From Nitrospinota bacterium (lineage in GTDB: Bacteria; UBA8248; JACPRG01), in assembly GCA_030740135.1 (NCBI GenBank), contig JASLXW010000181.1, forward strand, positions 1 to 7,850: a DNA stretch of 7,850 bases, read 5' to 3'. Under the pieces are notes generated by a model. It saw only the letters and a program-made list of their open reading frames with translations. It made no database searches and was not told the DNA's origin. Of the stretch, positions 300-7,583 are shown piece by piece; the first letter of the stretch is position 1; every line of letters starts with the position of its first letter. The translations under genes and the position numbers were made by a program.

Positions 300-2651
300 T
301 CAGGGGGCCTCTTCCGCCCGGTAGACCTTGCAGAGAAAGCCCCGGAGCTGGGGTCCTCCGTAGATGGGGTCGAAGCCCTGGCCCCGGTCGTTCCGGGTGA
401 TCATGTTCAGGTTGCTCTCCCGGACTCCGTACTCGGGTCCCTCGCGCTCGGGGTACCACCAGGCGTGCTGGTTGCAGATCACCCGGGGGTGGATCCCGTC
501 CAGCAGCTTGGCCTTCTGCCGGATGCGGCCCTTCGGGGTCTCGATCCAGACCCAGTCGCCGTCGCCGATGCCCAGGTCCTCGGCCGCCTTGCGGTTCATC
601 TCCACCAGGGGGTCGGGATTGCGCCGCCGGAGCTCGGGCACCTGGTGGTGTTCGGAATGGAAGAAGTGGGCGGTCCGCCGCGTCGTCGAGATGAAGGGAT
701 ATGGTTCGGACAGCGCGGCGTTGTGCGGCGATTCCTCCTTCGGCTCGACGTAGAAGGGGAAGGGGTCGTGGCCGTGCTTTTTGAAGGTCGTCTGGAACAC
801 CTCGACCCGTCCCGTCCGCGTCGGGAAACCGCCGCCCTCGCGGAAGTGGTCCCCCTCATGCTTGCGGTAGGTCTGGGGGTGGATGTACTGCCCCTCCCGC
901 TTGAGATCCTGGAAGGTCATGCCCGTCCGGGCCAGCCGCCAGTCGAAATACTCCTCCACAGTCTTCCAGGGGAAGGCCACGTGGAGGCCCATGCGGTGGG
1001 CCGTCTCGAGGAGGATGTCCTCGTCGTCGCGGCACTCGCCGGGCGGCTCGACCGCCTTGCAGCGCGCGAACTGGCCGAAGCGGGTGTAGGGCGTCGTGAG
1101 CTGGTCGCGCTCGAGCCACGTCGTCACCGGCAGGAACAGGTCGGACAGCGCGGCCGTGGGCGTCATGAACAGGTCGAAGGTCACCGAGAAGGGGATCTTG
1201 TGCATGACCTGGCGGCACGTCTCGGTGTCCTCGGCCGTCAGGAGGAAGTTGTGCCCGATGATGAAACACACCTGGACCGGCAGCTCGCCCGCGACGATGG
1301 CGTTATTGACCAGCGAGCCGTGGGTGATGCCCAGGATGGGAAACTCACGCGCGCCGTAATCGGCCAGCATCGCGCGGGATTTCTCGGGCAGCAGGTCCGG
1401 CCGCTCGTGCTCGGGGCCGAAGGGGTCCACGAACGGGCCGTGCTCCCAGATGGCCATCCCGCCCGGAACGTCCAGGTTGCCCGTCACGGTCATGAGAAGA
1501 ATGGCCACCTGCATCGTCTGGGAGTTGTTCACCCCCTGGACGTCCAGGGCGTTGCCCCACTGTATGACGGCCGGCTTGGTCGTGGCGAAGATGCGCGCGG
1601 CCTCGACAATCTTCTCGGCCGGAACCCAACAGATCTCGGCGACGCGCTCGGGGGGATACTCCCGGACCCGCTCGAGCAGGATGTCCCAGGCGGGGCGCAC
1701 CGAGACTCCGTTCACCTGGTAGGTTCCGGTGAGCGCCGGACGCTTTGAGTCATCCGGCGCACAGGGGCCGCCGGTTTCAGCGTCCCAAACGAGATATCTC
1801 AGCGCCCCCTCCTCCTCCTCCTCGCCCGCGTTCAGGAGGTCGCCGGTGTCCTCCCGGACCAGGAATGGGGCATTCGTCCAGCGCTCGACGAAGGGGCGGT
1901 CGTAGAGGCCCTCGTTCAAGATGACGTTGAGCAGACCGAGGCCCAGGGCGCCGTCCGTCACGGGTCGGATCTGAAGCCAGCAGCAATCGTTCCGTCTCGC
2001 CCAATGGGTCTCGATGGGGTCGATGAGGATGATCCGGGCCCCGCCCTTTATGGTCGGCGTCAGCCGGTTGCTGATCATCCCGTCGGCGTTGGTGAGGGGG
2101 TCGTTTCCCCACATCATGACGCATTTGGGATACTCCCCGCCCCAGCCGTAATAGTCGGCGACGGGGATCTTGGCGCCGAGGGTGACCTTGGCGACAGCCA
2201 CGCGGGGGAAATAGCAAAGGGGCGAGCGCCCCACGTTGAGGACCGCCCCCAGGGAATTGAAGAAGCGGTTGCCGAAGTTGTTCCACTCCCGGCCGGTCCC
2301 GCAGGCCTTGCCGATGTACTCGGGTCCGTAGTCCCGGATGGCGTCCTTGCATTTCCGCTCGAGCAGGTCCATGGCCTCCTCCCAGGAGACCCGCTCCCAC
2401 TGCCCCGAACCCCGGGGACCCGCCCGCTTCATGGGATGGATGACCCGGTCGGGACTGTTGGAGTATGAGATCGAGTAGCGGCCCTTGGTGCAGAGGTATC
2501 CCAGGCTGGTCGGACAATCGGGGTCGCCCTTGATGTCCACGGCCTTGCCGTCTTCGACCGTCACAAACGCCCCGCACGCGCCGTGACAATTGCGGCACAT
2601 CGTCCGGATGACTTGGGTGGAGGAATCGCCGGCCACTGGGTCCGAGGACAT
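300..2651 (-). CDS. Acetylene-hydratase-like Mo/W bis-pterin enzyme (DMSO reductase superfamily)
   Basis: A 783-aa catalytic subunit of the molybdopterin oxidoreductase superfamily. The N-terminal [4Fe-4S] motif is C19-x2-C22-x3-C26-x27-C54. The probable Mo/W ligand is C146 in RSPLCYFPR. The pterin-binding body includes MMWGNDPLTNADG and FMTPTAALSDLFLPVTTWLE, and the dinucleotide-binding domain covers roughly residues 650-775. By recall of the Pelobacter acetylenicus acetylene hydratase sequence, the two match along their length (HP-K--G-RG--QWER, the FMTPTA block, the GDWVWIET-type C-terminus). The query adds an insert of about 40 residues after the PFV region, with a five-Glu run. The catalytic Asp13 of acetylene hydratase, just after the second cluster Cys, is His23 here, so acetylene hydration is not expected; the substrate is unknown. 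No Tat signal or membrane segment is seen, so it is probably cytoplasmic. The ATG at 2651 is chosen because AAAGGAGG lies 7 bases upstream. An in-frame TTG at 2783 would add 44 residues but lacks such a site. The gene has its own promoter (2817-2844). Confidence 0.9.
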   Translation of the reverse strand: MSSDPVAGDSSTQVIRTMCRNCHGACGAFVTVEDGKAVDIKGDPDCPTSLGYLCTKGRYSISYSNSPDRVIHPMKRAGPRGSGQWERVSWEEAMDLLERKCKDAIRDYGPEYIGKACGTGREWNNFGNRFFNSLGAVLNVGRSPLCYFPRVAVAKVTLGAKIPVADYYGWGGEYPKCVMMWGNDPLTNADGMISNRLTPTIKGGARIILIDPIETHWARRNDCCWLQIRPVTDGALGLGLLNVILNEGLYDRPFVERWTNAPFLVREDTGDLLNAGEEEEEGALRYLVWDAETGGPCAPDDSKRPALTGTYQVNGVSVRPAWDILLERVREYPPERVAEICWVPAEKIVEAARIFATTKPAVIQWGNALDVQGVNNSQTMQVAILLMTVTGNLDVPGGMAIWEHGPFVDPFGPEHERPDLLPEKSRAMLADYGAREFPILGITHGSLVNNAIVAGELPVQVCFIIGHNFLLTAEDTETCRQVMHKIPFSVTFDLFMTPTAALSDLFLPVTTWLERDQLTTPYTRFGQFARCKAVEPPGECRDDEDILLETAHRMGLHVAFPWKTVEEYFDWRLARTGMTFQDLKREGQYIHPQTYRKHEGDHFREGGGFPTRTGRVEVFQTTFKKHGHDPFPFYVEPKEESPHNAALSEPYPFISTTRRTAHFFHSEHHQVPELRRRNPDPLVEMNRKAAEDLGIGDGDWVWIETPKGRIRQKAKLLDGIHPRVICNQHAWWYPEREGPEYGVRESNLNMITRNDRGQGFDPIYGGPQLRGFLCKVYRAEEAP

Positions 2652-2672
2652 GGGACCCCCTCCTTTCCCCCC
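2644..2672 (-). promoter_or_regulatory. Strong ribosome binding site of the Mo/W enzyme gene
   Basis: Reading the minus strand, AAAGGAGG is followed by about seven bases and then ATG (2651-2649). This near-perfect Shine-Dalgarno decides the start against the longer in-frame TTG extension. The first residues after this ATG (MSSDPVAGDSSTQVIRTMC) lead directly into the [4Fe-4S] motif, as in related cytoplasmic enzymes. Confidence 0.8.
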
Positions 2673-2741
2673 CGGTCCCGGCCGCCTCTCCGTTGCGATC
2701 CGGGCCCATCGGGTGGCTGAGAATGAATCGGAAAATCCCGC

Positions 2742-2767
2742 CGAAACACAGCGCCGCGGCCGTTTCG
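2742..2767 (-). other. Stem-loop in the leader of the Mo/W enzyme mRNA
   Basis: Perfect 6-bp complementary arms CGAAAC (2742-2747) and GTTTCG (2762-2767) enclose a 14-base GC-rich loop within the predicted leader of about 160 nt. No T-run follows, so it is not a terminator. I cannot match it to a known riboswitch; a molybdenum-cofactor-type leader is conceivable only from gene context. Confidence 0.25.
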
Positions 2768-2793
2768 CACAAACCCCGGCCAACGACGATTTC

Positions 2794-2853
2794 GCTTCCG
2801 CGTGTTTTGACTTCAGCCTATACGGTGGGGCCGAATGTTGTCAACGCGGAAGC
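2794..2853. promoter_or_regulatory. 10-bp inverted repeat flanking the promoter (candidate operator pair)
   Basis: GCTTCCGCGT (2794-2803) and ACGCGGAAGC (2844-2853) are exact reverse complements, 50 bp apart arm to arm. The upstream arm abuts the -35 box and the downstream arm lies about 7-16 bases after the predicted transcription start, so the whole promoter lies between them. The upstream arm also overlaps a 10-bp palindrome, GGAAGCTTCC (2848-2857), giving three GGAAGC half-sites in all. Spacing of about five helical turns would suit a repressor binding both arms. No regulator is encoded in the window. Confidence 0.45.
2817..2844 (-). promoter_or_regulatory. Sigma70-like promoter of the Mo/W enzyme gene
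   Basis: On the minus strand a perfect TTGACA (2844-2839) is followed by a 16-bp spacer and TATAGG (2822-2817, 4 of 6 to consensus). The predicted start of transcription near 2810 gives a leader of about 160 nt before the ATG at 2651. It lies between the OCD-family gene and the Mo/W enzyme gene, so the enzyme can be expressed separately from the upstream operon. Confidence 0.55.
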
Positions 2854-2870
2854 TTCCAAGGGGCGGAATT

Positions 2871-2934
2871 GGGGTCAGGACTTTACTTTTTGAGGCGGCC
2901 CCAGGGCCGGCGCGGGGTCAGGTCTCACGTTCCA
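2871..2934. repeat. REP-like element: two GGGGTCAGG copies around a hairpin
   Basis: GGGGTCAGG occurs at 2871-2879 and again in the same orientation at 2914-2922, each followed by a related segment (ACTTTACTT and TCTCACGTT). Between them CGGCCC (2896-2901) and GGGCCG (2904-2909) form a perfect 6-bp stem with a two-base gap. No T-run follows on either strand, so it is not a simple terminator. GGGGTCAGG-type units with short hairpins resemble, by my recollection, intergenic elements associated with REP-associated Y1 transposases. No transposase is present, so the assignment is tentative. Confidence 0.4.
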
Positions 2935-2937
2935 ACA

Positions 2938-4050
2938 TCACACGGATTGGCCGGGACCGGATGTCAGGTCGTTCCGGAAGACGAACGGCTGACCCACGCC
3001 CTTCTCGACCGCCAGCCCGTAGGCCCACCTCCCCACCGCCGCGTCCCACAAGCCCATGCCCTGCGTGGAACAAAGGGTGATCTCCTCCCCGCTCCGGCGG
3101 CCGGGGTCCCGGCCCGCGATGACGCCGGAGAGCTCGAAAACGTCCTCGTCCTTTAATTCGCCCGACGCCATCAGGTCCCCGAACGGCTGCATGGGCGGCG
3201 TATCATGAAGGATCTGGTCCTTCCAGACGGTGAAGACCCGGGAGCGCCGGACGGTCGTCGCGTCGATCTCGCCGCGGGCCACCTGCGTCACGTGGGTTCC
3301 CGGCCCGATCCATTCCCCGGCGAAGACCGGCTTCCCGGCGTTCGTGCACGTGACGACGATGTCGCACCCCTTCACCGCGTCCTCGGGGCGATCCACGGGG
3401 ACGATCTTCCGGGAGACTTCCCCGGCAAGCCGCTCGGCCAGGGCGTCGCGCCGGGCGGGCGTCCGGCCGCACAGCCGGACCTCTTCAATCCCGGGCCGCT
3501 CGTTCAGGACGGATTTGATCTGCGCGCTCGCGTGCCGGCCGGCGCCGAAGAAGCCGAAGACGCGCGAATCCTCCCGGGCCAGATGGCGGACCGAAAGCGC
3601 CGTGGGCGCGGCCGTCCGGGCGTTCATCAGGAGATAATGACTCATGACGGCGACGAGCTTCATCCCGTTGTCGTAGTCGTACACGACGAGAAGCTCCGAC
3701 CCCATCCGGTAATCGATGTCCTCCGCTTTCCTCGAGGGGTCGAGCACCCGGCCGCCGTGGTGGTCCGGGTAGGCGCGAAACGCGGCGACGCCCAGGCCGG
3801 GGAGGATGCAGGGAAGGATGCGAATGACCGATCCGTCCTCGTAACCCCGGCCTTCCGGGTAATCGACGTGCACCCGGGGGTGAAGCCGGAGGTCTCCGCC
3901 GGCCTGCTCGATGAAGGCCCGCTCAATCCAGTCGGTGGCCCCGGCGACAATCTCCGCCTCGGTCATCCCCTCGAAGAGGCTTTGAACGTCCCGCTCGCTG
4001 AGGATGAGCGTCGTATCGCCTTCTTTGAGCTCGCTTTCAGACCGGTTCAT
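2938..4050 (-). CDS. Ornithine cyclodeaminase/mu-crystallin family NAD(P)-dependent protein
   Basis: A 370-aa protein, slightly longer than the usual 310-350. The N-terminal half carries the family's substrate-domain signature, LLMNARTAAPTALSVRHLA, around R145 (the conserved RTAA motif). A Rossmann domain follows from about residue 160 with a GAGRHA dinucleotide-binding turn at 169-174, and a C-terminal segment holds LWDAAVGRWAYGLAVEKG. The family deaminates ornithine to proline or reduces imines or oxidises amino acids (alanine dehydrogenase, ketimine reductase, opine-type enzymes). Here the usual substrate Lys region reads AAFRAYPDHHGG with R92, and the usual D-x-x-G-K-x-E-L-D loop is shortened to VARGEID (257-263), which lacks the catalytic Asp. 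The true substrate is therefore unknown. ATG overlaps the stop of the VWA gene (ATGA), which indicates translational coupling; GGAG lies 9 bases upstream. Family assignment is firm, reaction is not. Confidence 0.85.
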   Translation of the reverse strand: MNRSESELKEGDTTLILSERDVQSLFEGMTEAEIVAGATDWIERAFIEQAGGDLRLHPRVHVDYPEGRGYEDGSVIRILPCILPGLGVAAFRAYPDHHGGRVLDPSRKAEDIDYRMGSELLVVYDYDNGMKLVAVMSHYLLMNARTAAPTALSVRHLAREDSRVFGFFGAGRHASAQIKSVLNERPGIEEVRLCGRTPARRDALAERLAGEVSRKIVPVDRPEDAVKGCDIVVTCTNAGKPVFAGEWIGPGTHVTQVARGEIDATTVRRSRVFTVWKDQILHDTPPMQPFGDLMASGELKDEDVFELSGVIAGRDPGRRSGEEITLCSTQGMGLWDAAVGRWAYGLAVEKGVGQPFVFRNDLTSGPGQSV

Positions 4051-5831
4051 CGGGCGTCACTCCGCAATTGGGTCGCTGAGGGCGGGGGGCCGTTTTGGCC
4101 GCCGCCAAACATGCATCGCCGCCGGCCCAGAAGCTCCCGCTCCAGGAGGGCGATCAACTCCGTCGCGAGCTGGGCCATGTCCTCGACCACGACGTGGTTC
4201 GGATAGATCTCCCGGACGTAATCGTCTTCGACTCCCACGGCGATGATCCGGTAACCGCGCCGGCCCAGCTCCCCCACCGCCTCGATCAGGTTGTGCGCGC
4301 TCCCGTTGGGTTGGCCGTCCGAGATGATGATGATGACCTTCGCGTTTTCCGGCCGTCCCGCCATGCGGCGCGCGGCGAACCCCAGGTGCTCTTCGTCCCA
4401 GTTGTTGAACCGGGGCGCGATGTGGACGAGCCGCGTCCTCACGGCCCGGAATGAATCGTCGAACGTCTTGTAGAGCCTGTGCTGGAGCCGGCTGTGCCGG
4501 ATGTGGCGATATTGGAACACCGGGACGTGGCCGCAGTTGTGGGCCATCACGGCCTCGGAGGCTTCGGTCGAGTATCCGATGATTTCGAAGGGGACCGAGA
4601 TTCCGTCCAGGGCCTCGGCGCAAAGGACGGACGCCCGGCGGGCCACGAGGAATTTCTTCTTTCGGTTCATGCTGCCGCTCTCATCCACCAGGAGCGAGAA
4701 GGCCACGTCCAGGCGATCCGGCTCGACCCTGCGTTGGAACAGCCGGTAATTTCCGGTCCGCTGCTTCCAGAGTTTCGCCGGGTTCAGCCTCCCCGACCGG
4801 TAGGCCCCCGCGTACCGGACGTACTGCCGCTCCCGGATCACCCGCTGGAGCCTCTGAACCATGACGCGGACCTGGCTGCCGGCCTCCGAGAGGATGTCCT
4901 GGTATTCGTCCAACCGTCCCCCGGGCGGCAGGACGATTGTCCGCTCGTCCGGGGCCAGGGCGTCGGGATGGATCTCCTTCGGCCGCGAATCCCCCTCCAG
5001 CCGCGGACTCCCCGTGAAGCTCAGGTTCGCCAGCTCCTCCGGCTCGATGCCGAGGAGCATTTCCCCCTCTTCCTCATCATCTTCGGAATATTCCGCGGCT
5101 CCGTCCTCGAATCGGACCTCCGCGCCGTCCTCGGCGCCGGACGTGGCGGGGGGCGCCCCCCGGGGGGAAAGCGTTTCTTCGGACAACTCGAAGAAGGGCG
5201 CGCAGCGTCGGAAGATTTCCAGTGCGGCGTCGGCGACCTCCTCCGGGTCTTCACAGGCGGCCGCCCGCTCCACCAGGGGGCCGATGAGCCCCAGGGCCAG
5301 GCGGGTGTCTTCATCCAGGCCGCCGGCCCCCTTCCCCCTCCCGGCGCGGTACATCCCCCACGCCAGACGGACCAGGAGGTGGAGCGCTCCCAACCCGGCG
5401 TCTCTTCGGGAATCGTTTTCCGCGCGCACCTCCAAAAAGGCGTCCGCGCCGGGGTAGCGATCGAGGAAGATGTTTTCCGCGCGCGCGTCTTCGAGCGCGT
5501 GCCAGATCAGGTGGATCGCCAGGGACTCGGCGAGGGAGCGGCCCGCCGACAGGCCGGCGGCCCGCCGGCTTCCGCGCGCGCTGCCCACGAAGAGATGGGC
5601 CGATTCGTGGAGGGTCTCTCCCCGCTCGGCGAGGGCGTCGGCCTCCCTTTGGATGCTGACCCGTGACCCGTCGGTCCCGTGGCCGGGCCCGAAGTCCAGC
5701 TTCACCTTGAAGTCTTGGGAGGCGATCTGCGCGAGACGCTCCCACCGGAGCCGGCGGAACGCGTCGGCGGAGGAGGAGGAAACGTCGGATGTCGGTTTTG
5801 GGGGGGGGTGAGAATGCCGGACGGGCGCCAC
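4047..5831 (-). CDS. CobT/NorD-like VWA-domain protein with N-terminal HExxH motif
   Basis: A 594-aa partner of the MoxR ATPase encoded just upstream. Residues about 60-135 hold an N-terminal domain with HESAH (75-79, an intact HExxH) and then HALEDARAENIFLDRYPGA (about 111-129). The latter matches the E-x-A-R-x-E segment known in CobT and NorD proteins. An acidic linker lies at about 235-265 (SEDDEEEGE). A basic segment follows, then a VWA domain of about 378-575 with the MIDAS motif DESGS (383-387) and ISDGQP (D505). The stretch from RHIRHSRLQHRLYK to WDEEHL resembles CobT. Such proteins pair with AAA+ partners to insert metals or remodel metalloenzymes (cobalt chelation, NO reductase, CO dehydrogenase). 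GTG at 5831 is chosen: AGGGAG lies 7 bases upstream and overlaps the TAG stop of the ATPase gene, and no in-frame ATG occurs before the conserved N-terminal domain. The target here is unknown; cobalamin synthesis genes are absent from the window. Confidence 0.85.
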   Translation of the reverse strand: MAPVRHSHPPPKPTSDVSSSSADAFRRLRWERLAQIASQDFKVKLDFGPGHGTDGSRVSIQREADALAERGETLHESAHLFVGSARGSRRAAGLSAGRSLAESLAIHLIWHALEDARAENIFLDRYPGADAFLEVRAENDSRRDAGLGALHLLVRLAWGMYRAGRGKGAGGLDEDTRLALGLIGPLVERAAACEDPEEVADAALEIFRRCAPFFELSEETLSPRGAPPATSGAEDGAEVRFEDGAAEYSEDDEEEGEMLLGIEPEELANLSFTGSPRLEGDSRPKEIHPDALAPDERTIVLPPGGRLDEYQDILSEAGSQVRVMVQRLQRVIRERQYVRYAGAYRSGRLNPAKLWKQRTGNYRLFQRRVEPDRLDVAFSLLVDESGSMNRKKKFLVARRASVLCAEALDGISVPFEIIGYSTEASEAVMAHNCGHVPVFQYRHIRHSRLQHRLYKTFDDSFRAVRTRLVHIAPRFNNWDEEHLGFAARRMAGRPENAKVIIIISDGQPNGSAHNLIEAVGELGRRGYRIIAVGVEDDYVREIYPNHVVVEDMAQLATELIALLERELLGRRRCMFGGGQNGPPPSATQLRSDAR

Positions 5832-5842
5832 CGGTGCGCTCC

Positions 5843-6751
5843 CTACTCGGGTTGATCCCGCGCGCCCGGCGGGCCGAAATAGTTCTCGACGACGTCCTGG
5901 ATCACCCGGGCGTCGAAGGCGGGCGCCTTGCTGAGCAGCGTGTGCCGCGCGGCCTCCAGCGGGCCGAACCGCTGGGCCATGCGGGCCCAGTCAATCACCC
6001 GGCGGGTGCTGCACGACCCGAAGAGCTTTTCCTCGGAGATGGCGGCCCGCAAATCCGCCGCGCACCGGACCATCTTCCGCACCGCGTCCTCGTCGGGATT
6101 GCCGCTCTGGACCCGGACCGCTTCCACCTCGGCATCCTCCGAGAGGTAGGTCATCCGCAGGGTCATGGGAAAGCGGTCCAGGAAGGCCTCGTTGAGGGGT
6201 TTTGTCCCGCCGTATTTCCGCTCTTCGGACGGGTTCATGGTGGCGAAAAGGCGGAAATCCGGATGGGGCCGGATGATCCGCCCATCATATTCCGTCAGGA
6301 CGATCATCCGGTCGTCGTCCAGCAGCGAATGGAGGCAAAAGGCGATTTCCGGCAGACAGGCGTTGATCTCGTCGATGAGGATCCAGTCGCCGGCCTCCAT
6401 GGCTTGGACCAAGACCCCGTTGGACCAGTACGTGCCGGAATTGTTGATCATCAGCTTGCCGACGAACTCGTCCACGGTCGTCATCCCGTTCAGGTTGACG
6501 CGGCGAAAACCGTTGTTGGTTTCGTGGGCCAGGTGGCGGATGGCGAGGGTCTTGCCGACGCCGGTTTCGCCGATGAGGAGGACGGGGAGGCTTTGGGACA
6601 CCGCCCACATGACCTTTTCCAACGCGCCGCCGGCCGGGATGTAGAACTGGGGCGGGGGGACGAAGTCGCTCGCGCCGTCCTCCCGGACGGGCAGCTCCAT
6701 CGAGCCGAGGCGAAACACCCGTTTTGGGCGAACGCGGTCTGGGCGTGTCAT
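5843..6751 (-). CDS. CobS-like MoxR-family AAA+ ATPase
   Basis: A 302-aa AAA+ ATPase. It has Walker A GETGVGKT (61-68), Walker B WILIDE (123-128), sensor 1 in LFATMNP (N173), an arginine finger in FLDRF (R193) and sensor 2 arginines in STRRVIDW (R250/R251). The IIRPHPDFRLFATMNP block and the length resemble CobS of cobaltochelatase, NorQ and CoxD. It probably forms a hexameric motor that acts with the VWA protein on a metal centre. The gene for that protein starts 11 bases downstream. ATG at 6751 is chosen: it lies 16 bases after the stop of the YqeB-like gene and precedes the conserved region. It has no clear Shine-Dalgarno, so termination-reinitiation coupling is likely. A GTG at 6823 would add 24 residues and overlap the upstream gene by 56 bases, but its GGGGGAG directly abuts the codon. 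Cobalt chelation itself is doubtful because no CobN subunit or cobalamin gene is nearby. Confidence 0.87.
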   Translation of the reverse strand: MTRPDRVRPKRVFRLGSMELPVREDGASDFVPPPQFYIPAGGALEKVMWAVSQSLPVLLIGETGVGKTLAIRHLAHETNNGFRRVNLNGMTTVDEFVGKLMINNSGTYWSNGVLVQAMEAGDWILIDEINACLPEIAFCLHSLLDDDRMIVLTEYDGRIIRPHPDFRLFATMNPSEERKYGGTKPLNEAFLDRFPMTLRMTYLSEDAEVEAVRVQSGNPDEDAVRKMVRCAADLRAAISEEKLFGSCSTRRVIDWARMAQRFGPLEAARHTLLSKAPAFDARVIQDVVENYFGPPGARDQPE

Positions 6752-6767
6752 TGGGAAGGGCTGAAAA

Positions 6768-7583
6768 TCAGTCGGCGACGCGGTTTTGCATCGAGAGACG
6801 CATGAGCAGGGCTTCCAGGACACCTCCCCCGATCGCGCGGGCCTTGTCCGAGATGGTGAAACAGTGCTCCGGGCGGCACCGGGGGTCCACGTCGGCCACT
6901 TTGAATCCTTCGGTCACCGCCAGGCCGTCCCGGAGCAGCCCCCGAAGGATCCCGTCGATCTCCGTCACGACCGGCCGGCCTTCGACCTCGGCCACCGCCT
7001 CACCGGACCGGACCGGATCGGCGATCTCCCGGAGGGATTGAAAGACGCCCGCGCAAGGGGCCCGCAGGACCCGTTCCGCGCCCTTTCCCCCCACGTTGCC
7101 CGGCACGCCGGTGTTGGGCTCGGCCGAGCCTTCCAGGATGACCCGGGCGAGATCGTGGCCCCGGTTGGTCTCGATGACGGCGTCTACGTCTTCGCCCGCG
7201 GTGAAACCCGGCCCCAGGCCGATCACGACATCCGCGATTCCCCGGCGGGTGCCGACGTTCCGCTTGGCCAGGATCGCGTCCACGACGGCGAAAGGATTCA
7301 ACCGTTCCACGATCCGGGCCCCGGGGTCCACCAGGACGGGGACAATCCCCTCCCGGCCGACGCGCATCGCTTCTTCCAGGCCGTCCACCCGGCGGGCCGT
7401 GATTCCCTCGACGGTGCATTCGCCTTCCGGAACGGCCTCGGCAAAGGCCACGGTCCGGCGAATGACGGTGGGGGAAGCGATATCGGTCGCGATGACGGGA
7501 AATCCGGAACGGACGAGACGGTGAATCACGCCCGTCGCCAAGTCCCCCGCGCCCCGAATGACAACCCAACTCTCTTCAAACAT
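6768..7583 (-). CDS. yqeB: YqeB/EF2563-family molybdenum-enzyme maturation protein
   Basis: A 271-aa protein that matches, by recall, the C-terminal half of E. coli YqeB. Matching stretches are VVIRGAGDLATG (residues 7-18, a Rossmann-like glycine turn), SPTVIRRTVAFAEAV (37-51), VDAILAKRN (101-109), LGPGFTAGEDVDAVIETNRG (123-142), NTGVPGN (157-163) and SDKARAIGGGVLEAL (245-259). Residues about 172-225 look like a lipoyl-type barrel. The family (EF2563) belongs to selenium-dependent molybdenum hydroxylase systems and is thought to help supply the labile selenium or mature the cofactor; the exact reaction is not known. E. coli YqeB carries an extra XdhC-like N-terminal part of about 270 residues that is absent here, as in EF2563. 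C236 and C241 form a C-x4-C pair near the end. ATG at 7583 is preceded by GAGG with a 7-base spacer. It is the first gene of the leftward operon. No molybdenum hydroxylase subunits are seen in the window. Confidence 0.88.
   Translation of the reverse strand: MFEESWVVIRGAGDLATGVIHRLVRSGFPVIATDIASPTVIRRTVAFAEAVPEGECTVEGITARRVDGLEEAMRVGREGIVPVLVDPGARIVERLNPFAVVDAILAKRNVGTRRGIADVVIGLGPGFTAGEDVDAVIETNRGHDLARVILEGSAEPNTGVPGNVGGKGAERVLRAPCAGVFQSLREIADPVRSGEAVAEVEGRPVVTEIDGILRGLLRDGLAVTEGFKVADVDPRCRPEHCFTISDKARAIGGGVLEALLMRLSMQNRVAD

What the first reader, a model, noticed from the sequence alone, without database searches (positions are those of the whole stretch)
300..7583. Candidate new Mo/W-enzyme maturation module: YqeB-like, CobS-like AAA+, CobT-like VWA, OCD-family and acetylene-hydratase-like enzyme
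Seen: a nearly gapless operon links a YqeB/EF2563 protein, a MoxR AAA+ ATPase, a VWA protein and an OCD-family protein, and is followed by a bis-pterin Mo/W enzyme on the same strand. Known: MoxR/VWA pairs mature metal centres (CobS/CobT; NorQ/NorD; CoxD/CoxE for the Mo-Cu-S site of CO dehydrogenase), and YqeB proteins belong to selenium-dependent molybdenum hydroxylases. Inference: here the two maturation themes are combined for a DMSO-reductase-superfamily enzyme, or for a hydroxylase just outside the window. I know of no described system with this set.
Basis: partly seen in the sequence, partly recalled or inferred. Interest (0 to 1): 0.7.

Follow-up and report, generated by a model that had tools for sequence, protein, structure and literature searches.

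The report
Selenium-molybdenum maturation operon with ATPase
In a little-known group of environmental bacteria, the gene that marks selenium loading of molybdenum enzymes sits in one tight gene block with an ATP-driven motor and its partner protein, which suggests a motor step in building this poorly understood selenium cofactor.

Summary
The five genes are real: YqeB (371.7 bits, cut-off 220), a CobS-like AAA+ ATPase, a CobT-like VWA protein and an OCD-family protein in a tight row, then, 286 nt on, an acetylene-hydratase-like enzyme. But the conserved system is a different set. In the 18 held genomes of one related phylum, YqeB-AAA-VWA are neighbours in 16 (contig ends hide the other two), and YqeC and XdhC follow in 16 of 16 readable cases. 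OCD and the Mo enzyme are not part of it. The core is therefore a YqeB/YqeC/XdhC selenium-molybdenum-hydroxylase maturation operon with a MoxR/VWA pair built in. The pair is not CobST (no CobS over cut-off in 18 genomes, CobN in 5) and not CoxD/CoxE, which 16 of 18 carry elsewhere. One genome of another phylum has MocA-YqeB-YqeC-XdhC followed by a CoxD/CoxE-type pair, suggesting a second recruitment. Inferred mechanism: the motor opens the apo-hydroxylase so that YqeB/YqeC/XdhC can place selenium on molybdenum, as CoxDE/CoxF do for sulfur and copper. Weak points: most YqeB loci lack such a pair, no target gene is adjacent, and the window lacks yqeC and xdhC.

The parts
6768..7583 (-). yqeB (TIGR03309): putative selenium-cofactor maturation protein; model shows a Rossmann-like part and a barrel-sandwich (biotinyl-like) domain
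   Evidence: 371.7 bits, cut-off 220; model pLDDT 89.5; fold matches; Cys241 invariant in 26 of 26 aligned rows
5843..6751 (-). MoxR-type AAA+ ATPase, CobS-like but not CobS
   Evidence: AAA_5 95.6 bits; TIGR01650 83.2 bits, cut-off 558.55; Walker A, Walker B, sensor-1 Asn and four arginines invariant in 17 of 17 aligned rows (motif names recalled); own group in trees
4047..5831 (-). VWA protein, CobT_C-type, partner of the AAA+
2938..4050 (-). OCD/mu-crystallin-family protein; start overlaps the VWA stop by 4 nt; local accessory, not seen in relatives' blocks
   Evidence: PF02423 149.4 bits; NCBIfam matches all under cut-off; no OCD hit in the loci printed
300..2651 (-). acetylene-hydratase-like bis-pterin Mo/W enzyme; neighbour, probably not part of the module
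   Evidence: relatives at E<=1e-100 in 7 of 18 genomes, all on other contigs than yqeB

Best explanation
The core (YqeB, AAA+, VWA) is a variant of the selenium-cofactor maturation operon for molybdenum hydroxylases. Shown: the conserved neighbourhood YqeB-AAA-VWA-YqeC-XdhC in one phylum; separateness from CobST and from the genomes' own CoxDE; intact ATPase and MIDAS motifs; a different MoxR/VWA pair beside YqeB-YqeC-XdhC in one genome of another phylum. Inferred: the AAA+ ring, steered by the VWA protein, binds and remodels a folded apo-hydroxylase so that its buried molybdenum site becomes reachable. XdhC brings or holds the molybdenum cofactor, and YqeB (with YqeC) delivers activated selenium made by SelD. 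This parallels CoxD/CoxE/CoxF, which add sulfur and copper to CO dehydrogenase after it has folded.
For: 16 of 18 genomes of the phylum of G013 show YqeB-AAA-VWA contiguous and in order (G001-G004, G006-G013, G015-G018; in G013 and G016 the VWA gene runs into the contig end). G005 has the block split over two contigs, and in G014 yqeB is cut by the contig end. YqeC and XdhC follow the VWA gene in 16 of 16 genomes whose contig goes on (families named in L006). TIGR01650 finds exactly one protein per genome in 17 of 18, and it is this AAA+. In a 386-genome sample this AAA+ type (E<=1e-60) is in 17, all with YqeB. selD over cut-off in 11 of 13 plus 3 of 5, so 14 of 18 of the phylum's genomes, against 2 of 14 control genomes. 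All 18 carry 5-14 MoCoBD_2 hydroxylase hits. L213 (G066): MocA-YqeB-YqeC-XdhC-CoxD-type AAA-CoxE on one strand, selD present. [quoted passage not shown]
Against: The window lacks yqeC and xdhC and has OCD and another Mo enzyme there instead. Four canonical loci (E. coli, Haloarcula, Collinsella, Enterococcus) and 17 of 18 YqeB loci outside the phylum (several end at a contig end near yqeB) show no such pair, so it is not generally needed. G009 has a second YqeB without the pair (L144). selD was not found over cut-off in 4 of 18 genomes; these are draft genomes and the tool gives no completeness. No hydroxylase gene was seen in the block. Many close AAA+ relatives exist whose gene context could not be read; three of the listed ones carry Chloroflexota or Anaerolineales names. 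The phylum counts are largely one evolutionary event, and the second case is one genome. Support for the module AAA+ group fell from 96/93 to 49/69 in the second tree.
Confidence: 0.62

Rival explanations
1. The pair serves molybdenum hydroxylases in general (cofactor insertion or Mo sulfuration together with XdhC), and selenium is incidental: YqeB and YqeC merely share the operon.
For: XdhC is the fifth gene in 16 of 16 readable genomes; CoxDE also works on a hydroxylase without selenium; 5-14 hydroxylase hits per genome; selD not found in 4 of 18 genomes; [quoted passage not shown]
Against: The AAA+ gene lies directly next to yqeB, not next to xdhC; 16 of 18 genomes have a second, separate CoxDE-type pair.
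Confidence: 0.2
2. One reading: the four genes mature the acetylene-hydratase-like enzyme beside them.
For: Same strand and next gene in the window.
Against: 286-nt gap, with a GGAGG-like stretch of its own just before the ATG; absent from the relatives' blocks; where close relatives of the enzyme exist (7 of 18 genomes at E<=1e-100) they are on other contigs than yqeB, and 11 of 18 genomes with YqeB have none at that threshold.
Confidence: 0.05
3. The pair has another client (for example a respiratory complex or the OCD protein) and lies next to yqeB for historical or regulatory reasons.
For: MoxR/VWA pairs have many clients (PMC7159879, passages); module-type AAA+ proteins also exist in contexts I could not read.
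Against: Order kept in 16 of 18 genomes and an apparently independent MoxR/VWA neighbour in G066.
Confidence: 0.13

Closest known systems
CoxD/CoxE/CoxF-I, maturation of [CuSMoO2] CO dehydrogenase (Oligotropha carboxidovorans)
   Same: MoxR-type AAA+ plus VWA plus XdhC-family protein acting on a molybdenum hydroxylase
   Different: Other AAA+ group and other VWA family; YqeB and YqeC instead of copper handling; 16 of 18 genomes carry a CoxE with a CoxD-like AAA beside it as well
Selenium-cofactor (SDMH) loci: YqeB, YqeC, XdhC, MocA, SelD (E. coli, Enterococcus, Haloarcula, Collinsella)
   Same: YqeB, YqeC and XdhC together in the relatives; selD in 14 of 18 genomes
   Different: No AAA+/VWA pair in the loci read
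Cobaltochelatase CobS/CobT
   Same: Nearest curated NCBIfam models for both proteins
   Different: Far under cut-off (83.2 of 558.55; 45.8 of 759.05 bits); CobN not found in 13 of 18 genomes
NorQ/NorD
   Same: VWA model close to NorD VWA
   Different: AAA+ falls outside the NorQ/CbbQ group; no nor genes beside it
Acetylene hydratase (2e7z)
   Same: Best solved relative of the fifth gene; a Cys is aligned in both at the place recalled as metal ligand
   Different: The residue after the second cluster Cys is His, not the Asp of the hydratase (the catalytic role of that Asp is recalled)

Membership tests
Selenium-cofactor (SDMH) trait | YqeB over TIGR03309 cut-off | tested here: met
   371.7 versus 220 bits
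Selenium-cofactor (SDMH) trait | YqeC together with YqeB | tested here: inconclusive
   Not in the 7850-base window; after the VWA gene in 16 of 16 readable relatives; the window's genome is not held
Selenium-cofactor (SDMH) trait | selD in the genome | tested here: inconclusive
   Window's genome not held; 14 of 18 relatives over cut-off
Selenium-cofactor (SDMH) trait | labile Se at the Mo site of a hydroxylase | not testable with these tools
   Needs protein; relatives have 5-14 hydroxylase hits
Cobaltochelatase CobNST | CobS and CobT over their curated cut-offs | tested here: not met
   0 of 18 relatives have a CobS over cut-off
Cobaltochelatase CobNST | CobN in the genome | tested here: inconclusive
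   Window's genome not held; 13 of 18 draft genomes of relatives show no CobN
NorQ/NorD | AAA+ within the NorQ/CbbQ group, nor genes adjacent | tested here: not met
   NorQ/CbbQ rows form their own group, 100/100 and 99/99; no nor gene in the window
CoxD/CoxE | AAA+ in the CoxD group; VWA_CoxE over cut-off | tested here: not met
   CoxD rows apart at 100/100; VWA_CoxE 20.2 bits, cut-off 26.4
MoxR/VWA pairs (broad kind) | intact Walker A/B and MIDAS, genes adjacent | tested here: met
Acetylene hydratase | Asp directly after the second Fe-S Cys (role recalled) | tested here: not met
   His in the aligned place

The most novel reading that the evidence does not exclude
A MoxR/VWA motor is a dedicated selenium-insertion machine for molybdenum hydroxylases, recruited at least twice from different MoxR/VWA lineages (CobS-like here, CoxD-like in G066), and it lets these bacteria load selenium into fully folded enzymes.
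Probability: 0.42. Interest if true: 0.78.

Novelty: new variant of a known kind. Interest (0 to 1): 0.6.

Why it matters
The selenium modification of molybdenum hydroxylases is called the least understood mechanism of biological selenium use in PMC11448449 (passage), and the papers I looked into name YqeB, YqeC, XdhC-type proteins and SelD for it. A conserved ATPase/VWA pair in the operon gives a concrete new component and an energy-using step, and links this pathway to the CoxDE system for the copper site. Expressing the five genes with and without the pair would make the open question testable.

Tried and rejected
Considered and dropped: cobaltochelatase, NorQ/NorD and CoxDE identity; a five-gene module including OCD and the Mo enzyme; an adjacent hydroxylase as target (the two long ORFs downstream in L002 matched no molybdenum-enzyme family).

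Led nowhere: matching contig lengths of protein hits to infer linkage. Fifteen lengths were shared between the VWA and AAA lists, but only one and two with YqeB, and short lengths can agree by chance. The context of AAA+ relatives outside the phylum could not be read. VWA against plasmids gave 953 records, none covering 80% of the query; the 20 listed are 27% identical matches in Klebsiella. The viral-contig scan gave two AAA loci: L113 (49% identity; put in the first tree; no YqeB hit in the 11.7 kb held) and L114, not studied. Two distant YqeB-like plasmid loci (35-39%) also showed no pair. Promoter and terminator scans did not exceed shuffles, and Rfam gave nothing. Hydroxylase targets: one search had a logic slip and found 2 proteins; one search repeated it and found 50 ORFs over 450 aa in 50 partly overlapping loci; no single target emerged. 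I sent 4 of G006's 5 hydroxylase hits to NCBIfam; none passed a cut-off. OCD was never searched genome-wide, only by tblastn on fetched loci. The Mo enzyme was searched only at E<=1e-100.

Trees: module AAA+ rows (22) group at 96/93 but at 49/69 after I dropped two long rows (L159, L113) and added L213. Holding module plus CobS as one clade is disfavoured (p-AU 0.012), but I named that group after seeing the first tree.

Literature: 'selenium-dependent molybdenum hydroxylase' with 'AAA+ ATPase': 0 papers; CobS, CobT, MoxR, selenium: 0; 1, a review of magnetic interactions, listing only; 1, on CO dehydrogenase. PMC2432076, PMC5322559 and PMC5029168 were searched for ATPase, MoxR, von Willebrand and chelatase: 0 hits but for 3 'ATPase' in the last, not of this kind. 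Most of the 9, 12 and 25 papers found I saw only as listings. Only open-licence papers are held.
Full report
WHAT IS THERE. On the minus strand lie yqeB (7583-6768), an AAA+ gene (6751-5843), a VWA gene (5831-4047), an OCD-family gene (4050-2938) and, after 286 nt, a bis-pterin Mo/W enzyme gene (2651-300). YqeB scores 371.7 bits against its curated cut-off of 220. The AAA+ and VWA proteins hit CobS and CobT models far under cut-off (83.2 of 558.55; 45.8 of 759.05 bits). The AAA+ keeps Walker A, Walker B and sensor residues in 17 of 17 aligned rows. The VWA keeps MIDAS Asp383, Ser387, Thr422 and Asp505 in 23 of 23 rows and Ser385 in 22 of 23 (motif names recalled).

WHAT IS CONSERVED. A scan of genome contigs with the VWA protein gave 13 loci, titled Nitrospinota, Nitrospinae, Nitrospinaceae, Tectomicrobia or just bacterium. 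The phylum of G013 has 18 held genomes, these 13 included. YqeB is in 18 of 18, 17 over cut-off, and the VWA protein in 17 of 18. YqeB-AAA-VWA are contiguous, in order and on one strand in 16 of 18; in two of these (G013, G016) the VWA gene runs into a contig end. Of the other two, G005 is split between two contigs and G014's yqeB is cut by a contig end. After the VWA gene come YqeC and XdhC in 16 of 16 genomes whose contig goes on. In L006 these are YqeC (TIGR03172, 167.2 bits, cut-off 73.05) and XdhC (both Pfam XdhC domains over cut-off; NF045664 339.2 bits, just under its 350). Taking the longest reading frames, the L006 joints are -4, 11, -4 and 23 nt. OCD is in none of the loci printed. 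The Mo enzyme has relatives at E<=1e-100 in 7 of 18 genomes, best 68% in G008, always on contigs other than the yqeB contig. So the module is YqeB-AAA-VWA-YqeC-XdhC; OCD and the Mo enzyme are local to the window.

WHAT THE PAIR IS NOT. The CobS model gives one hit per genome in 17 of 18, always this AAA+, never over cut-off. CobN is found in 5 of 18, each time on another contig than yqeB. CoxE (PF05762) is found elsewhere in 16 of 18, in all 16 with a CoxD-like AAA beside it (loci L086-L101). In a tree of 39 AAA+ rows CoxD, NorQ/CbbQ and CobS (joined by Burkholderiales CobS-like rows) each stand apart from the module rows, which group at 96/93. A second tree of 38 rows keeps the separations but supports the module group at only 49/69. 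The pair is best called a MoxR/VWA lineage of its own, on the CobS-like side.

HOW SPECIFIC THE LINK IS. In a 386-genome sample (the 18 plus 368 others) the module-type AAA+ at E<=1e-60 occurs in 17 genomes, all in the phylum and all with YqeB. YqeB occurs in 36 at E<=1e-40, 34 over cut-off: 18 in the phylum and 18 outside. I read the surroundings of all 18 outside. One, L213 of G066, has MocA-YqeB-YqeC-XdhC followed on the same strand by a CoxD-type AAA+ (62% to the CoxD of G013) and CoxE (PF05762, 206.6 bits). This AAA+ falls in the CoxD group, so it is a different MoxR/VWA lineage. The other 17 showed no AAA/VWA gene with eight such queries, several of them near contig ends. G066 is the only held genome of its phylum, so this second case rests on one genome. 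The E. coli, Haloarcula, Collinsella and Enterococcus loci show no pair. The phylum counts are not independent events.

SELENIUM AND TARGETS. selD is over cut-off in 11 of 13 and 3 of 5 of the phylum's genomes, and in 17 of 18 outside genomes with YqeB; among the 14 control genomes it is in 2. PMC2276186 (part 1 of 4 of the text) reports TIGR03309 only in selD-positive genomes. The five misses here may be gaps in draft assemblies, whose completeness the tool does not give, or true exceptions. All 18 genomes have 5-14 MoCoBD_2 hydroxylase hits. Comparing 50 large-subunit ORFs and testing four from G006 singled out no target; known hydroxylase families were matched only under cut-off.

MECHANISM (INFERRED). 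In CO dehydrogenase the [CuSMoO2] cluster is completed inside the folded apoenzyme with CoxD (MoxR-like AAA+), CoxE (VWA) and CoxF (XdhC-like) (PMC4240915; PMC2997495, passages). The module has the same kinds of protein with YqeB and YqeC in place of copper handling. The simplest reading is a motor that opens the hydroxylase active site so selenium can be set on molybdenum. The link between pair and YqeB is shown by gene order only; client, selenium transfer and ATP use are inferred.

WINDOW-SPECIFIC POINT. Here OCD follows the VWA gene with a 4-nt overlap where relatives have yqeC. Either yqeC and xdhC moved elsewhere or were lost; the window's genome is not held, so I cannot say. The window's AAA+ pairs with P0123 and, at 82/98, groups with rows of which three carry Chloroflexota or Anaerolineales names, rather than with the 18-genome rows.

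VERDICT. The five-gene idea is replaced by a conserved YqeB-AAA-VWA-YqeC-XdhC module. I found no paper describing it in the searches listed, within an open-licence library.

Noticed in passing
window 2871-2882 and 2914-2925: Two near-identical 12-nt copies, GGGGTCAGG(A/T)CT, between the OCD and Mo-enzyme genes; such repeats recall mobile or REP-like remnants (recalled), perhaps marking a rearrangement. Short two-copy repeats can be chance.
   Followed up: no
L144 5958-6758 (G009:C125): Second YqeB (317.6 bits) in a genome that also has the module; no AAA, VWA, YqeC or XdhC hit in the 14 kb read.
   Followed up: partly
L013 19-1493: The closest relative's VWA gene is read in two frames (tblastn 19-930 and 927-1493): an assembly slip or a broken gene.
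   Followed up: no
L108 5677-8524 and L158 4656-7606: Burkholderiales plasmids carry a CobS-like/CobT-like pair with no cobN in the stretch shown; function unknown.
   Followed up: no
L054-L069: One hydroxylase group spans 15 genomes of the phylum; an AYRGAGR loop (CoxL form II motif, recalled) is seen in 16 of its 17 rows, the G012 row being a fragment.
   Followed up: no
P0160, P0165, P0170, P0205: AAA+ relatives 68-69% identical to the window's, three of these four named Chloroflexota or Anaerolineales. The VWA and AAA hit lists share 15 contig lengths, so the pair is probably also linked elsewhere.
   Followed up: partly
L089 1465-3616: The phylum's CoxD/CoxE-type pair scores best, under cut-off, with NCBIfam models named MadB and MadC.
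   Followed up: no
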